From Ardenticatenales bacterium (GTDB lineage: Bacteria > Chloroflexota > Anaerolineae > Ardenticatenales > Ardenticatenaceae): a DNA stretch of 11,912 bases. A program made the translations under genes and the position numbers. Positions 4,636 through 11,065 of this stretch are shown piece after piece. How positions within the stretch are numbered: the stretch's first letter is position 1; every line of letters begins with the position of its first letter. The notes under the pieces are model-generated. The model did not search any database. It worked only from the letters and a program-made list of their open reading frames with translations, and had not been told where the DNA came from. Location: contig JACCSL010000856.1 in the NCBI GenBank assembly GCA_013812995.1, positions 1 to 11,912 of the forward strand, given 5' to 3'.

Positions 4636-5269
4636 CATCCTCCGCGATGGTACAGTAGTAGCCGTACTGGACGCGACATTCCAGGGGGGGGCTGGGCGGC
4701 AACTCGACGCCCTGGCGGCGCAGTGAGCGAACAACATGGCAGAGAGGTAGCCCCATCACATTCGCCGGGCAGCCCACCACCTGCGCGACGGGCGCAAACT
4801 CAATGTTCTGGATGCCATAAGCGGCGGCCTTGTCCATCGTCTCCCCGCTGGCGATGTAGGCGTCGATCTCCTCGTCGCTCATGTCGCGCATCGTGACCTT
4901 GGTATCGCAGAGGTCCGTCAGCGTCTTGCCCGTGGCCCCATCGCGGACAGAGACCCCCGTGAGCGCCCGGTGGCTCTGGCCGCGTAGCCGCTGGAGCATC
5001 TCCCGGGCGTGCGCCTCGTCGCGCGGCTTGCCCATGATTTCCCCCAGGTACACCACGATGGTATCCGCCGCAATCACAACGGCCTCCGGGTGATGCACGG
5101 CTCCCGCCTCGGCCTTCTCACGACTGAGGCGCTGAACATAGTCCGCCGGGGCCTCGCGGGGCTGCACGCTCTCGTCGGTGTCTGTTTTTTCGACCTCGAA
5201 GGGCAGCGCCAGCATCGCCAGGAGTTCCCGGCGACGAGGACTGGCGCTGGCCAGAACAATCTCCGTCAT
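4607..5269 (-). CDS. maf: Maf-family nucleoside triphosphate pyrophosphatase
   Basis: A 220-residue Maf/Ham1-superfamily enzyme that hydrolyses nucleoside triphosphates (dTTP/UTP or modified nucleotides) to monophosphate and pyrophosphate and is linked to septum inhibition. Visible blocks are the N-terminal LASASPRRRELL (6-17), TDES (31-34), AADT (67-70) with Asp69, GKP (80-82), TG at 104-105, and KAAAYGIQ (147-154). Arg13, Lys52 and Gln154 agree with the dTTP/UTP-type subgroup. VGCPANVMGLPL (165-176) replaces the common VGDYxNVxGLPL. An extra tail of about 30 residues after the core contains C198 and C206. The ATG overlaps the stop of the receiver gene (ATGA, 5269-5266), and a purine-rich Shine-Dalgarno lies just upstream, so translational coupling is likely. 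The 3' end runs 29 bases into ade on the opposite strand. Confidence 0.94.
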   Translation of the reverse strand: MTEIVLASASPRRRELLAMLALPFEVEKTDTDESVQPREAPADYVQRLSREKAEAGAVHHPEAVVIAADTIVVYLGEIMGKPRDEAHAREMLQRLRGQSHRALTGVSVRDGATGKTLTDLCDTKVTMRDMSDEEIDAYIASGETMDKAAAYGIQNIEFAPVAQVVGCPANVMGLPLCHVVRSLRRQGVELPPSPPLECRVQYGYYCTIAEDVMPGLTPTG

Positions 5270-6902: not shown

Positions 6903-7865
6903 TTAGGGGATAATCACTCGAATATCGCAGGGTGGAGGAAAATTGCCCGTCTCATCTACCACTGTCAGGCGCAGGGTCCAGATGCCTGAAGCAAGGCCGC
7001 TGGCCGCCCAGCTCGCCAAAAACCCATTCTGGACCGGCTGGCGAACGACATCGCCGATCACGGAAAATGAGCCGGGGCTGCCGCCCTGCCCAAATTCTAC
7101 CTTGTAGAACTGGAAGCGGTCAATGTCTGCTGTCCCAACGATAGAAACATTGCCGCTCACGACCTGTCCATGCGACGGCGAAGTAAGTCGGACACCCGGT
7201 GTGGTGCAGCTCGCGGCGGGCACCGGGGGCGTGGTCGGCTCAGGGGGGCGCGTGGGGATGGGCGTCGCGGGAATAGAGGTAGCCGTGAACGTCGGCGGGA
7301 AAGTGGGAAAGCGTGTGGCAGTCGGTGCAAAGGTCGCCGTAGGAGCAAACGTGGCTGTGGCCGCGACAGTTGCGGTCGACTCCGGCGGGGCCGTGGGTGC
7401 TGGCGTCGCGGTTGCCTCTGGCGTCGCGGTTGGTTCTACAGAAGGCGTGAGTTCCGTAGAACTCGCTGTGGGAGCGGGGGGGGGCAGCTCAATGGTCGCT
7501 GTTACTTCCACCGTTGCTACAGGGGTCTCAGGCGGTGCGGCCCCAATGGCGGGCGAGGTGGGTGTGACCGTGGGAGGCTCCTCTACCACTACGCCTCCCT
7601 GCGGGCTCTCTGAGGTGGGCAGCAGGATGCGGTCAATGTAGAAGGTGGTGGCGAAAATAGCGAACAGAATGGTAAAGATAACCAGAGAGTCGCGCAGCAT
7701 GGCGCTGGCCTCTTCCCGCTCGATGGGAAAGGGGTTATAGCGCCGGATACGATTGGCCTCCCGAGCACGAAAGAAGTAGAGCAGCATGCCCACAAGGCTG
7801 GCGGCATAGAAGCCATGCGGATAGGTATCGACGAAGAGCAGGGCGCTTTTCAGGAAATCTTCCAT
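6903..7865 (-). CDS. Two-TM protein with long Thr/Pro-rich stalk and C-terminal beta domain
   Basis: A 320-residue membrane protein without a known function. Hydrophobic segments at about 18-32 and 60-78 are separated by a basic loop (RAREANRIRRYNPFPIEREE), which by the positive-inside rule is cytoplasmic, so both ends would face outside. Residues about 98-218 are a low-complexity stalk of Thr, Pro, Ala and Val with a near-exact duplication (TATFAPTATFAPTAT, about 170-184). Residues 220-320 form a compact domain starting CTTPGVRLTSPSHGQVVSGN and containing VSIVGTADIDRFQFYKVEFG and GIWTLRLTVVDETG, an Ig-like/beta-sandwich pattern seen in surface proteins; C220 and C313 could form a disulfide. 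It is first in the probable operon with the M48 protease, receiver and maf, behind a near-consensus promoter. The stalk may be glycosylated (inference). Confidence 0.85.
   Translation of the reverse strand: MEDFLKSALLFVDTYPHGFYAASLVGMLLYFFRAREANRIRRYNPFPIEREEASAMLRDSLVIFTILFAIFATTFYIDRILLPTSESPQGGVVVEEPPTVTPTSPAIGAAPPETPVATVEVTATIELPPPAPTASSTELTPSVEPTATPEATATPAPTAPPESTATVAATATFAPTATFAPTATRFPTFPPTFTATSIPATPIPTRPPEPTTPPVPAASCTTPGVRLTSPSHGQVVSGNVSIVGTADIDRFQFYKVEFGQGGSPGSFSVIGDVVRQPVQNGFLASWAASGLASGIWTLRLTVVDETGNFPPPCDIRVIIP
7401..7432. repeat. Direct repeat inside the Thr/Pro-rich stalk
   Basis: The 14-base string tggcgtcgcggttg occurs at 7401-7414 and again at 7419-7432 (period 18 bases). On the coding (minus) strand it encodes the Ala-Thr-Pro repeats of the stalk. 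The stalk is therefore expanding or contracting at the DNA level in multiples of three, typical of such linkers. Confidence 0.7.
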
Positions 7866-7961: not shown

Positions 7962-7990
7962 ATTCTAGCTCGCCTAGGCGGGGCTGTCAA
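7962..7990 (-). promoter_or_regulatory. Near-consensus sigma-70 promoter of the minus-strand operon, with spacer palindrome
   Basis: On the minus strand TTGACA (7990-7985) is followed after exactly 17 bases by TAGAAT (7967-7962), 97 bases upstream of the Thr/Pro-rich gene's ATG. The spacer contains the perfect palindrome CGCCTAGGCG (7971-7980), a possible repressor-binding site placed where it would block RNA polymerase. The match is five or six of six bases in both boxes. Confidence 0.75.
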
Positions 7991-8070: not shown

Positions 8071-8099
8071 TTGACAATGTTTAATAATTTTACTATATT
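8071..8099 (+). promoter_or_regulatory. Near-consensus sigma-70 promoter of the DUF2089 cluster
   Basis: TTGACA (8071-8076), a 17-base AT-rich spacer and TATATT (8094-8099) form an excellent sigma-70-type promoter. The expected transcript start is near 8106, giving a leader of about 29 bases that contains only the ribosome binding site ggagga (8121-8126). It is divergent from the promoter at 7962-7990, so 7866-8134 is a bidirectional control region. About 80 bases lie between the two -35 boxes, with no clear inverted repeat. Confidence 0.82.
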
Positions 8100-8134
8100 A
8101 TACATACAGTTCAATCTTATGGAGGACTACCTGA

Positions 8135-8554
8135 ATGAATCGACTTCCCACATCCTGTCCGTTCTGTGAGGGCGAGTTGAGCGTCGAGAGTCTGCACTGC
8201 CGCCAGTGCGACACAACCATCACCGGGCATTTTTCGCCGGGCCCCCTTGGCGAGTTCGAGGAAGATCAGCTTCCCGTTCTGCGCCGCTTCGCCCGGCTCA
8301 ATGCAGAGCAGCTTCGCTTTCTGGAAGCCTTCGTGCGCTGCGAGGGCAAGCTCAATCGTCTCCAGGAAGAGATTGGTCTCTCCTACCCCACGCTGCGCTC
8401 GCGGCTGGATGACCTGGTGCGGGATCTGGGCTTTACCCCGCGCGAGGAGGAGCAGAGCCAGGCCGTCGACCGACGCCAGGTGTTGGCTGACCTTCAATCC
8501 GGCAAGATCTCGGCCACGGAGGCGGCCCGCCTGCTACGGGAGTCCCGCCCCTAG
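8135..8554 (+). CDS. DUF2089-family zinc-ribbon/HTH protein with C-terminal SHOCT-like module
   Basis: A 139-residue protein of the DUF2089 family, likely a transcription regulator. The N-terminus is a zinc ribbon (C8xxC11 and C22xxC25, read as SCPFCEGEL...LHCRQCDTTI). Residues about 54-95 (RLNAEQLRFLEAFVRCEGKL...LSYPTLRSRLDDLV) are a helix-turn-helix-like region that aligns with the family core. Residues 112-136 (DRRQVLADLQSGKISATEAARLL) are a SHOCT-like helical module that reappears in the next two genes. The start has a good Shine-Dalgarno (ggagga, 8121-8126) 8 bases upstream. It is first in the cluster, 50 bases before the next gene. DUF2089 genes are known neighbours of LiaX/YvlB-type genes in Firmicutes. 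Regulation of its own cluster is an inference. Confidence 0.9.
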   Translation: MNRLPTSCPFCEGELSVESLHCRQCDTTITGHFSPGPLGEFEEDQLPVLRRFARLNAEQLRFLEAFVRCEGKLNRLQEEIGLSYPTLRSRLDDLVRDLGFTPREEEQSQAVDRRQVLADLQSGKISATEAARLLRESRP

Positions 8555-8604
8555 CTGTCATACTCGATATCCCATTCGACCATTCAAACAAGGAGTCGTA
8601 GACG

Positions 8605-9015
8605 ATGAAAGAAGAACGATTGCAGATTCTGCGCATGATTCAAGATGGCACCATAACGCCCGAGGATGGGGCCAAGTTGCTCGCGGCGCTGACCGAGGGG
8701 CGCGGCGGCATCCCGCCGGTGCCGCCGATGCCGCACATGCCGCCCGGCCCTGGTGCCCTGTTCAACCCCTTCCAGGAGACGCCAATCTCGAACCGCCGCT
8801 GGCTGCGCATCCGCGTGACGGACACCACCAACGAGCGTGTGCGCGTCAATGTGACCATCCCTATCGGTCTGCTGGATTGGGGGCTCAAGATGGCTCAGAT
8901 GAGCGGTGTCAACCTCGCCGCGATTCGCGAGGCCATTCATGGCGGGGCCGAGGGCAAAATCCTGGAAGTGGACGAGAGTGAGTCCGGCGACCGTGTAGAA
9001 ATCTTTGTGGAGTAA
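8605..9015 (+). CDS. Small LiaX/YvlB-like protein with N-terminal SHOCT-like module
   Basis: A 136-residue protein. Residues 1-32 (MKEERLQILRMIQDGTITPE..., ending LLAALTEG) are a SHOCT-like module; residues 33-60 are a Pro/Met-rich linker (PPVPPMPHMPPGPG); residues 64-136 form a compact domain with RRWLRIRVTDT, RVRVNVTIPIGLLDWGLKM, IREAIHGGAEGKILEVDE and the terminal GDRVEIFVE. This domain is recurrent next to DUF2089 and LiaX/YvlB-like genes in other bacteria; its biochemical role is not known to me. There is no signal peptide or membrane segment. The Shine-Dalgarno aaggag (8590-8595) is 9 bases before the ATG. Only 8 bases separate its stop from the next start, indicating one transcript. 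Confidence 0.88.
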   Translation: MKEERLQILRMIQDGTITPEDGAKLLAALTEGRGGIPPVPPMPHMPPGPGALFNPFQETPISNRRWLRIRVTDTTNERVRVNVTIPIGLLDWGLKMAQMSGVNLAAIREAIHGGAEGKILEVDESESGDRVEIFVE

Positions 9016-9023
9016 GGAAACTC

Positions 9024-10364
9024 ATGACAACAATACTGAACAATCTGGAAGTGGCGGAGCGTGTTACCCTGGAACTCTCCGGTGGTGATGTGGTGGTAAA
9101 AGCAGCAGAGGGCGCCGCCCGACTCATCGGGAAAGCCAAAGTAGAGCAGCGCGAGGGCGAAACGGTGATCCGCGCAAAAGACGATGTGGTTCTCACCCTG
9201 CCTGGCCGCGTGACTCTCACCTTGCGGGGCCGCACCAATGACGTGGCGTTGAACGGCCTGGGGGAGGTGCTTCTGGCCAATGGCTGTGGCGGCGATCTGT
9301 CCGCGAGCCATATTCGCGTGCTGCGCTCGGAGGGAGAGCTGACCGGCGATGTCGCGCTGCGACAGATCAGCGAGGATGTGACGCTGGGGCAAATCTATGG
9401 GGACCTGGTTATCAGCCACGGCGCGGGGATCACCCTGGCGCAGGTTCACGGGGATATCACGCTGCGCCATGTGGGCAGCGTCCAACTCAATCAGGTGCAT
9501 AGTGATCTTACCATCACGCAGGCGGCTTCCGTGCAGATAGCTATGGTCTCCGGCGATGTGCGCCTGGATGCCATTGCGGGGGCCATTGTCGTCCAGCAGG
9601 TTGACGGCGACCTTATCGTTCATCAGCCTGGTTCCTCGCTGGTGGCCCCTGCCGTGGCCGGGGATGTGCGCCTTGCGGGAACGCTGAAGGGCAACACGGA
9701 GTATCTCATCAAGGCCGATGGGGATGTCGAGCTACGGGTGGATGGCAACGCGCATTTCACCTTTCGCTCGGTGGATGGAGAGCTTCACCTGGGCGAGGGA
9801 CTGGAGCAGGAGCAGGGCGAGGATGGCACCATCCACGTCTACATGGGGCAGCGCGAGGGTGCCGCGCAGGTCACCATCGAGGCAGGGGGGGATGTTTCCA
9901 TCGACTTCCTTGAGCGCGAGCGCGAGCACCGACGCGGCCATCGCAAGCATTGGTCGGGCGACTTCCACTTCGAGGGTCCAGGGGTGCGCGTCCATGTGGA
10001 CCCCGAGATTCGCCAGGCGATGGAGCAGGCGCGAGAAGAGGTCAAGCGCGCCCAATACGAGGTCAAAGAGGAGCTCAAGCGCGCCAAGCAGCACATCCGC
10101 GAGGAGATGAAGCACGCCTTCCGTGACGCCGATACGCATGGTATGGCCGGAGCCGCCATCGGCGAGATCATTCGCGGCAGCCTCGGCGAACTTCTGACGG
10201 CGCTGCGCCCCGCGCCGCCTGCACCCCAGGCCCCCGCGCGCCCATCCGCGCCGCCCGCGCCCACGCCGCCCTCCAGCGAGGAGATCAAGCTGATCCTCAG
10301 CATGGTCCAGGAGGGCAAGATCACCCCCGAAGAGGCCGAACAGCTCATCCGCGCAATGGAGTAA
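9024..10364 (+). CDS. Beta-solenoid repeat protein with coiled coil and C-terminal SHOCT-like module
   Basis: A 446-residue protein, broadly similar to DUF4097/LiaX-type beta-repeat proteins. Residues about 90-258 consist of consecutive 17-20-residue units opening with Gly/Ser-Asp/Glu-hydrophobic (for example GDLVISHGAGITLAQVH at 126-142 and GDITLRHVGSVQLNQVH at 143-159), the pattern of a beta-solenoid with one coil per unit. Residues about 296-310 are Arg/His-rich (REREHRRGHRKHW); 327-366 form a charged coiled coil; 396-416 are a Pro/Ala linker; 418-445 (EEIKLILSMVQEGKITPEEA...) are a SHOCT-like module. There is no signal peptide or TM, so a cytoplasmic, possibly polymerising or membrane-associated protein is likely. 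In LiaX/YvlB the module is N-terminal; here it is C-terminal. The Shine-Dalgarno taagga (9013-9018) decides the start. A terminator follows at once. Confidence 0.88.
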   Translation: MTTILNNLEVAERVTLELSGGDVVVKAAEGAARLIGKAKVEQREGETVIRAKDDVVLTLPGRVTLTLRGRTNDVALNGLGEVLLANGCGGDLSASHIRVLRSEGELTGDVALRQISEDVTLGQIYGDLVISHGAGITLAQVHGDITLRHVGSVQLNQVHSDLTITQAASVQIAMVSGDVRLDAIAGAIVVQQVDGDLIVHQPGSSLVAPAVAGDVRLAGTLKGNTEYLIKADGDVELRVDGNAHFTFRSVDGELHLGEGLEQEQGEDGTIHVYMGQREGAAQVTIEAGGDVSIDFLEREREHRRGHRKHWSGDFHFEGPGVRVHVDPEIRQAMEQAREEVKRAQYEVKEELKRAKQHIREEMKHAFRDADTHGMAGAAIGEIIRGSLGELLTALRPAPPAPQAPARPSAPPAPTPPSSEEIKLILSMVQEGKITPEEAEQLIRAME

Positions 10365-10378
10365 TCGGTTAATTCAAT

Positions 10379-10413
10379 AAAAAGCCGCTGCCAGTCGTTG
10401 TCAGCGGCTTTTT
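10379..10413 (+). terminator. Intrinsic terminator of the DUF2089 cluster
   Basis: aaaaagccgctg (10379-10390) pairs perfectly with cagcggcttttt (10402-10413) around an 11-base loop, and the T-run continues (ttttttattt). It begins 14 bases after the stop of the solenoid-repeat gene. The A-run on the left arm means it could also act on the opposite strand. Confidence 0.9.
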
Positions 10414-10506: not shown

Positions 10507-10935
10507 CTACGTTCCGCAGTAGGGGCAGATGTTCCAATCAAGCTTCATCATACGGGTACAGTTGGTGCAACGATTTTTCAGACGGGTGGAGCAGTTGGGG
10601 CAGAGCAAAAAATCGTCCTCCACCGACTCGTGGCAGGCCGGGCACACGTTGCGCTCCTCGATCTCTTGGAGCAGTGCCTCCTCCTCCAGCGAGCGCTCGT
10701 ACTGCTCGGCCAGCGTCTCGCGGGGGCGCAGCAGCAGATAGAGCAGCATACCCGCAAAGGGCAGCAGGAGGACCAGCAGGAGCGCGAGAAGCACCGCAAA
10801 GATGTCGCGGGTGCGCGCCCGAATGTCACGGAACACCCAGATTGCCGTGCTCAACCAAAGCGCGAGCCCAAAGGCCCCTAAAAAGACGAGTGCCGCCCGG
10901 AGAGCGGTCCCTAGCTGTTCGACAATAGCGTCCAT
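10507..10935 (-). CDS. Two-TM protein with C-terminal double zinc ribbon
   Basis: From the ATG at 10935 this is a 142-residue protein. TM segments lie at about 13-34 and 46-69, with a short basic turn between (RDIRARTRD). A charged segment PRETLAEQYERSLEEEALLQEIEER (71-95) follows, then four Cys pairs: C98xxC101, C112xxC115, C123xxC126, C137xxC140, i.e. two tandem zinc ribbons ending CPYCGT. Both zinc ribbons should lie in the cytoplasm. I have seen this architecture chiefly in Chloroflexota; its function is not known to me. The frame is open further upstream to an ATG at 11052, but a good promoter (11040-11012) lies inside that stretch and the added 39 residues look unnatural, so 10935 is the better start. 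The Shine-Dalgarno (AAGGGA) is 11 bases upstream, which is rather far. Confidence 0.85.
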   Translation of the reverse strand: MDAIVEQLGTALRAALVFLGAFGLALWLSTAIWVFRDIRARTRDIFAVLLALLLVLLLPFAGMLLYLLLRPRETLAEQYERSLEEEALLQEIEERNVCPACHESVEDDFLLCPNCSTRLKNRCTNCTRMMKLDWNICPYCGT

Positions 10936-11011
10936 AACCAGCAGAATCCCTTGTAGTGCTTTTTTCTTGATGAGGATAATAGGCCCACCAGCGGGGGGGC
11001 AAACGGGCGGC

Positions 11012-11040
11012 AGTATATCACCGCTATCAGGCAATGTCAT
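11012..11040 (-). promoter_or_regulatory. Promoter of the zinc-ribbon membrane gene
   Basis: On the minus strand ATGACA (11040-11035), 17 bases, then TATACT (11017-11012): five of six consensus matches in each box with ideal spacing. A transcript starting near 11005 would have a leader of about 70 bases and could not include the upstream ATG at 11052, which supports the start at 10935. Confidence 0.7.
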
Positions 11041-11065
11041 ATTATCCCCCAACCCGCCGATGCTT

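What the first reader, a model, noticed from the sequence alone, without database searches (positions are those of the whole stretch)
8071..10413. Three-gene unit in which every protein carries the same SHOCT-like module: a split, rearranged LiaX/YvlB-like system
One promoter and one terminator enclose three genes. Each protein has one copy of a ~28-residue module of the form ILxxxQxGxITPEEAxxLL: residues 112-136 (C-terminal) of the DUF2089 zinc-ribbon/HTH protein, 1-32 (N-terminal) of the small protein, 418-445 (C-terminal) of the solenoid protein. In LiaX/YvlB of Firmicutes the module sits N-terminal to a beta-repeat domain in one chain. Here it is distributed over a regulator, an adaptor-sized protein and a scaffold-like protein, as if the module pairs them. 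A possible reading is a cytoplasmic envelope-stress complex in which the regulator is held by, or released from, the beta-repeat protein. The sharing and layout are seen; the mechanism is inference.
Basis: partly seen in the sequence, partly recalled or inferred. Interest (0 to 1): 0.72.

Follow-up and report, generated by a model that had tools for sequence, protein, structure and literature searches.

The report
Membrane-less DUF2089–toastrack operon variant
Three neighbouring genes in a Chloroflexota bacterium, a zinc-ribbon DNA-binding regulator, a small protein and a beta-repeat scaffold, really do share one short two-helix module; this is a trimmed variant of an operon type already outlined in print, without the membrane-anchored partner that many relatives have.

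Summary
Pfam assigns one family, PF22746 (SHOCT-like_DUF2089-C), to all three proteins; for the regulator the score is below the curated cut-off. Profiles of protein ends chosen by position match each other; controls do not. Genes A (DUF2089 regulator), B (small protein) and C (toastrack) sit in one unit with promoter- and terminator-like sites.

Ravi et al. 2024 already outlined DUF2089–toastrack–SHOCT-like neighbourhoods. Of 80 Chloroflexota loci fetched with B, 63 hold A, and 60 of those 63 carry at least three module genes. Module position is fixed by protein type, and modules resemble the same protein type elsewhere, not their operon mates, so this is no recent split of LiaX/YvlB.

In 39 of the 63 a further gene encodes B's domain with transmembrane helices; none was found in this genome. 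The five other genomes assigned to the window's family keep A–B without C, though their B proteins are distant from the window's. A TTGACA-N4-TTGA repeat over the –35 box upstream of A suggests self-regulation; the window's copy is imperfect.

Best reading: an autoregulated envelope-stress-type unit with a soluble B in place of the membrane twin. Docking through the module is inferred.

The parts
8071..8099 (+). sigma-70-type promoter (TTGACA-17-TATATT); -35 box overlaps the candidate regulator site
   Evidence: consensus 11 of 12; TTGACA-N4-TTGA in 8 of 30 TTGACA sites upstream of DUF2089 genes vs 0 of 300 other TTGACA sites in the same loci; the window reads TTGACAATGTTTAA, one base off
8135..8554 (+). 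gene A: DUF2089 regulator (zinc ribbon, HTH, C-terminal SHOCT-like module)
   Evidence: PF22747 residues 8-37, PF09862 residues 55-100 above cut-off; PF22746 residues 113-136 E 1.8e-4 below cut-off
8471..8545 (+). module of A (C-terminal)
   Evidence: PF22746 22.4 bits in the six-frame genome search, below cut-off
8605..9015 (+). gene B: small protein, N-terminal module + linker + beta-beta-alpha-alpha-beta-beta domain without Pfam hit
   Evidence: PF22746 residues 3-32; model pLDDT 78, pTM 0.44, helices 2-14 and 19-31, strands 66-73, 78-86, 117-124, 129-135
8611..8700 (+). module of B (N-terminal)
   Evidence: PF22746 42.7 bits
9024..10364 (+). gene C: toastrack (DUF4097) beta-solenoid, long charged helix, C-terminal module
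   Evidence: PF13349 residues 136-293, PF22746 residues 419-446; model pLDDT 87, strands to residue 295, helices 327-371, 418-429 and 435-445; Foldseek/VIA matches to beta-solenoids incl. putative adhesins
10278..10361 (+). module of C (C-terminal)
   Evidence: PF22746 44.1 bits
10393..10409 (+). intrinsic-terminator-like hairpin with T run
   Evidence: consensus scan; a 172-base copy of the end of C including this hairpin, 83% identical, lies elsewhere in the assembly

Best explanation
An autoregulated DUF2089-toastrack operon of the envelope-stress kind, in a variant that has no membrane-anchored partner. A is a zinc-ribbon/HTH transcription factor that binds a TTGA repeat over the -35 box of its own promoter. 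B and C are its operon partners. The shared two-helix SHOCT-like module is a docking element through which A is held in, or released from, a B- (and, where present, C-) containing assembly, so that scaffold state sets operon output. In many relatives a twin of B with transmembrane helices ties the assembly to the membrane; here only the soluble B is found. Shown: gene layout, module homology, B/membrane-twin homology, fold of C (predicted), A-B pairs without C in other genomes. Inferred: DNA binding, docking through the module, direction of regulation and the stress signal.
For: Module homology with controls. Linkage: 60 of 63 A-bearing loci, of 80 fetched, have at least three module genes (loci were fetched with B, so B is present by construction). 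B's C-terminal domain is homologous to that of the membrane protein T: hhalign E 4.6e-20 against controls of 0.21 and 0.59 (alignment). T was not found in any of the six family genomes. Candidate operator. C is modelled as a beta-solenoid and has no transmembrane segment by hydropathy. Published context: Ravi et al. propose that these DUF2089 contexts send membrane signals to transcription; in B. subtilis YvlB interacts with PspA, LiaH and Yvl proteins in two-hybrid tests (PMC9239133, passages); short DUF2089 proteins are listed in leaderless-bacteriocin gene clusters beside membrane proteins (PMC7332713, PMC10707071, PMC9484092; one passage each).
Against: The only experimental test I read of a SHOCT domain as an oligomerisation element was negative, though that was a PF09851 domain fused to rat CD4 (PMC3581485, abstract and passages). 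Modules of one operon are not more alike than modules of different operons in five of six type pairs (A-B p 0.024, uncorrected), so there is little sign of partner matching. The window's operator copy is imperfect, 22 of 30 sites lack the repeat, and an unbiased k-mer ranking gave nothing that survives correction. Lack of T is not special to the window: 24 of 63 A-bearing loci show none in the stretch held (some stretches are cut short). No complex could be modelled. The stress role rests on relatives only.
Confidence: 0.5

Rival explanations
1. The module is a membrane-surface anchor, not a protein-protein docking element: each of the three proteins is recruited on its own to the inner leaflet (the proposal of Ravi et al. 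2024 for SHOCT-like domains), and the shared module only co-localises them.
For: Authors' proposal. Little partner matching between modules of one operon. One SHOCT domain failed an oligomerisation test.
Against: In 44 proteins the module sits on a chain that already has one to three predicted transmembrane segments, two in 37 of 44, where a second anchor is not needed. A DNA-binding regulator with a constitutive membrane anchor is awkward unless release is regulated (inference).
Confidence: 0.25
2. A and B form a two-gene regulator/co-regulator pair with a function of their own; C is an optional passenger acquired or kept only in some lineages.
For: Five of five other family genomes keep A-B and gave no toastrack match by window C, PF13349 or the 40-row C alignment. 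Twelve close A and B database relatives have longest contigs of identical length (co-location inferred), and none of the nine C relatives other than the window's own does (candidate-capped; most of these contigs are under 6 kb, so C could lie outside).
Against: 53 of 63 A-bearing loci in other Chloroflexota have C downstream of A. In the window, B and C are 8 bases apart. The five family B proteins lie at tree distance 2.1-2.6 from window B, farther than all 60 lone B proteins of the other loci (1.0-1.9), so the family may not speak for the window's unit; I lowered this rival from 0.20 to 0.17 for that.
Confidence: 0.17
3. A true split LiaX/YvlB: one ancestral module-toastrack protein was broken up and its module spread over three genes in this lineage.
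For: Same domain set, module plus toastrack.
Against: C still carries a module; position is fixed by type; modules cluster by type across the loci.
Confidence: 0.05

Closest known systems
DUF2089-Toastrack four-gene context of Ravi et al. 2024 (mSystems, PMC11237479; abstract, passages and section 27 read)
   Same: Zinc ribbon-HTH-SHOCT-like regulator in one context with a toastrack gene; SHOCT-like domains at both ends of various domains incl. toastrack; a stress-to-transcription role is proposed there
   Different: The window has three genes and no LiaI-LiaF-TM, PspC, B-box or other membrane partner in the unit; the text read does not mention a small soluble B or its membrane twin (figures and supplements not seen)
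LiaX / YvlB (liaXYZ, yvlABCD)
   Same: SHOCT-like module plus toastrack, for CAB15517.1 (taken to be YvlB, recalled); LiaX has an alpha-helical N-terminal domain and a beta C-terminal domain PF13349 (PMC10269926, passages)
   Different: Module N-terminal there, C-terminal here; the liaXYZ partners are PspC- and YvlD-type genes, here a DUF2089 regulator and B. Whether LiaX itself matches PF22746 was not tested
Chloroflexota A-C-T-B operons (e.g. L013, L018, L040)
   Same: Same module proteins A, B, C with the same module positions
   Different: They add a ~210-aa membrane twin of B between C and B; the window has none
A-B1-C-GNAT-B2 operons (e.g. L036, L067, L076)
   Same: No membrane twin of B; order regulator, small module protein, toastrack as in the window
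   Different: They carry a GNAT-type gene (one member tested) and a second small protein; the window's B is nearer to lone and last B proteins (72 proteins, distance 1.0-2.1) than to first-position B1 (12 proteins, 1.6-2.8, median 2.5)

Membership tests
DUF2089 regulators | zinc ribbon (PF22747) and HTH (PF09862) above cut-off | tested here: met
   42.0 and 68.7 bits against 27.6 and 33.4
DUF2089 regulators | C-terminal SHOCT-like domain (PF22746) | tested here: inconclusive
   21.5 bits, E 1.8e-4, below the 27-bit cut-off; the profile of relatives' C-termini matches B and C modules
DUF2089 regulators | binds DNA / regulates transcription | not testable with these tools
   only a candidate operator
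SHOCT-like PF22746 | score above cut-off in B and C | tested here: met
   39.7 and 37.5 bits against 27
SHOCT proper (PF09851) | match to PF09851 | tested here: inconclusive
   not listed for A, B or C at E <= 1; HMMER filters drop weak short matches
Toastrack / DUF4097 | match to PF13349 and beta-solenoid fold | tested here: met
LiaX/YvlB | module N-terminal to the toastrack in one chain | tested here: not met
   module at 419-446 of 446 residues, toastrack at 136-293
LiaX/YvlB | operon with PspC/YvlD-type membrane genes | tested here: not met
   unit holds A, B, C only; the two flanking genes are on the opposite strand and neither lists PspC at E <= 1
LiaX/YvlB | works through LiaFSR | not tested
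   no search for LiaF, LiaS or LiaR was made; one PspA homologue lies on another contig
DUF2089-toastrack context of Ravi et al. | DUF2089 gene in one unit with a toastrack gene | tested here: met
   (B lies between them)
DUF2089-toastrack context of Ravi et al. | fourth, membrane gene in the unit | tested here: not met
   no membrane twin of B found by alignment A4 in this genome (83.6% complete) or the five others of the family

The most novel reading that the evidence does not exclude
The SHOCT-like module is a common plug that lets a DUF2089 regulator choose between a soluble (B) and a membrane-anchored (T) copy of the same receiver domain, with the toastrack as the switch; the window lineage has lost the membrane branch and runs a purely cytoplasmic form whose output is autoregulation through a TTGA repeat over the -35 box.
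Probability: 0.15. Interest if true: 0.62.

Novelty: new variant of a known kind. Interest (0 to 1): 0.36.

Why it matters
PF22746 modules occur in 259 of 400 genomes drawn from the window's phylum, and among the seven papers of the library that name DUF2089 the passages I saw report no experiment on a DUF2089 regulator (the Pfam accessions are named in no paper of the library). This unit and its relatives reduce the question to a testable core: a small regulator (A), a small partner (B), a membrane twin of that partner in relatives (T), a shared ~27-residue module, and a candidate operator. Genomes with A-B and no toastrack, and units with a toastrack but no membrane twin, are natural deletion experiments.

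Tried and rejected

Family caveat: window A is 74-78% identical to the best database relatives (first rows) but 45-55% to the other family genomes, window B is farther from the family B proteins than from all 60 lone B proteins of the other loci, and the assembly has 4% contamination; a misplaced contig or horizontal transfer cannot be excluded.

Full report
OBSERVATION. The three ORFs are as described: A 8135-8554, B 8605-9015, C 9024-10364, all on the + strand, with gaps of 50 and 8 bases and purine-rich stretches before each start. A consensus promoter (8071-8099) and a terminator-like hairpin (10393-10409) enclose them (consensus scans, not proof). Pfam gives A a zinc ribbon, the DUF2089 HTH and, below its cut-off, PF22746; B PF22746; C DUF4097 and PF22746. 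To test it without using module hits, I took protein ends by position: C-termini of 113 A relatives, N-termini of 120 B relatives, C-termini of 61 toastrack-cluster proteins. Profile comparison gave E 1.6e-9 (A-B), 4e-12 (A-C) and 1.3e-15 (B-C); six control pairings with other segments gave 0.019 to 0.63.

RARITY IN THE GENOME. The assembly is 5.03 Mb in 1069 contigs, 83.6% complete. Of ten PF22746 matches listed at E <= 10, four are at E <= 1e-3: the three here and one on contig C636. The C636 match is a 172-base, 83% identical copy of the end of C with its hairpin and without C's stop codon at the same place; the C profile found no further toastrack part on that contig at E <= 0.01.

NEIGHBOURHOODS. 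A scan of named bacterial and archaeal genomes with the B alignment confirmed 497 relatives; the best 80 were kept. Of these 80, 63 hold a DUF2089 gene; of the 63, 53 have a C gene downstream, 39 a membrane module protein (T), 34 both, and 60 at least three module genes. B is present by construction. Module position, window included: A C-terminal 66 of 66, C C-terminal 69 of 69, B N-terminal 88 of 88, T N-terminal 44 of 44; 7 more of the 274 module proteins fell outside these types. The commonest orders are A-C-T-B (15 loci) and A-C-T-x-B (9), where x is a cluster whose one tested member is an MFS transporter. Order A..B..C occurs in 12 of 80; ten of the twelve lack T and all ten contain B-C-G-B, G being a cluster whose one tested member is a GNAT acetyltransferase. 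In all, 24 of 63 A-bearing loci show no T in the stretch held, so the window's lack of T is not unique. In the phylum, 259 of 400 drawn genomes have a PF22746 match at E <= 0.01 and 191 of 400 one over the cut-off.

B AND ITS MEMBRANE TWIN. T is the module, then one to three hydrophobic segments (two in 37 of 44, simple hydropathy scan), then the same C-terminal domain as B (alignment; hhalign E 4.6e-20, controls 0.21 and 0.59). B is thus T without its membrane part. The T alignment found only B ends and modules (one of them the weak G401:C140 segment) in the window genome and the five other genomes of its family.

THE FAMILY. All six family genomes have A. In the other five, A is followed by B and the next gene is on the opposite strand, with no C. 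Window C, PF13349 and the 40-row C alignment found no toastrack in these five; the alignment's matches at E < 0.01 there are at the module end only, and three rows at E 0.15-0.43 elsewhere are of chance level. Those genomes are 86-99% complete. This would make B the constant partner of A and C an optional one. Caveat: window A is only 45-55% identical to them against up to 78% to database relatives, and the family B proteins lie at tree distance 2.1-2.6 from window B while 60 lone B proteins of other loci lie at 1.0-1.9, so the family may not represent the window's unit.

AGE OF THE MODULES. Of 267 typed modules, the nearest module in another locus is of the same protein type for 259, and for none is an operon mate of another type closer than all same-type modules elsewhere. 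The modules are old, separate lines, not a recent break-up of one protein.

CANDIDATE OPERATOR. Upstream of A in 64 loci (window and five family loci included) there are 30 TTGACA sites in 28 loci; 8 of 30 have TTGA starting exactly 10 bases on, and 4 have TCAA at 9. Of 300 other TTGACA sites in the same loci, 0 have the former, nor do the 76 AT-rich ones among them. In 5000 shuffles the best offset-word count never passed 5. The window has TTAA at that place. The test was framed after viewing the sequences and loci are partly related; an unbiased k-mer ranking did not survive correction. I treat it as a lead for self-regulation.

LITERATURE. Ravi et al. 2024 (PMC11237479; abstract, passages and section 27 read) report a four-gene context with DUF2089 (zinc ribbon, HTH, SHOCT-like) and toastrack, SHOCT-like domains at both ends of various domains including toastracks, and propose stress signalling to transcription; they suggest the module anchors proteins to the membrane. 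The SHOCT paper (PMC3581485; abstract and passages) found no oligomerisation for one SHOCT domain. LiaX work (PMC10269926; passages) and the B. subtilis two-hybrid data (PMC9239133; passages) give the relatives' roles. The library holds seven papers naming DUF2089. In the six besides Ravi et al. I saw the passages naming it: gene lists of leaderless-bacteriocin clusters (PMC7332713, PMC10707071, PMC9484092), one gene in an iron-stimulon table (PMC10434189), an HTH-fold assignment (PMC2686095), and a plant histone deacetylase domain list (PMC2671507). None reports an experiment on a DUF2089 regulator in those passages. SHOCT domain/SHOCT-like gave eleven papers, of which two were opened; the Pfam accessions gave none. 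The library lacks most subscription papers.

MECHANISM. I commit to an autoregulated stress-type unit in which the module docks the regulator to B and C (confidence 0.5). Shown: parts, homology, layout, A-B pairs without C, no membrane twin found. Inferred: DNA binding, docking, signal. The membrane-anchor reading of the module (0.25) and an A-B pair with C as passenger (0.17, lowered) remain open.

VERDICT. A sound observation of a known kind of operon, in a variant without the membrane partner; interest moderate.

Noticed in passing
L140 (G000:C636) 5014-5172: A 172-base partial copy (83% identity) of the 3' end of gene C with its module and hairpin; the reading frame runs on past the place of C's stop, and GAGGAGGG lies before an in-frame ATG. 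Remnant or free-standing module gene, unresolved.
   Followed up: partly
L161 (G401:C140) 726-1526: A protein beside a LarE-like gene (it looks like LarB; both names recalled) starts with a module-like two-helix segment that scores 26.2 bits to PF22746, below cut-off. A DUF2089 relative, P0184, is listed with PF09861 as well. Possible wider use of the hairpin.
   Followed up: no
window 10507-11052 (-): Convergent gene: protein with two hydrophobic segments, a PLDc_N-like stretch below cut-off and a C-terminal double zinc ribbon.
   Followed up: no
window 7962-7990 (-): A strong promoter-like site (11 of 12) facing away from the trio, upstream of gene 6903-7865, which has one hydrophobic segment and a Big_7 match below cut-off.
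   Followed up: no
L027, L028, L033, L043, L061, L064, L069, L071, L074: In nine of 80 loci a transporter-cluster gene (the L043 member is MFS by Pfam) lies between T and B (A-C-T-x-B), suggesting a linked transport output.
   Followed up: no
L146 (G000:C523) 1408-2241: The one PspA homologue found in the assembly lies between an AAA-ATPase-like gene and a transposon-like gene, both on the opposite strand (gene types read by eye).
   Followed up: no
PMC7332713, PMC10707071, PMC9484092 (papers): Short DUF2089 proteins (89 and 98 aa where given) are listed with small membrane proteins in leaderless-bacteriocin clusters; whether they carry the SHOCT-like module was not tested.
   Followed up: no
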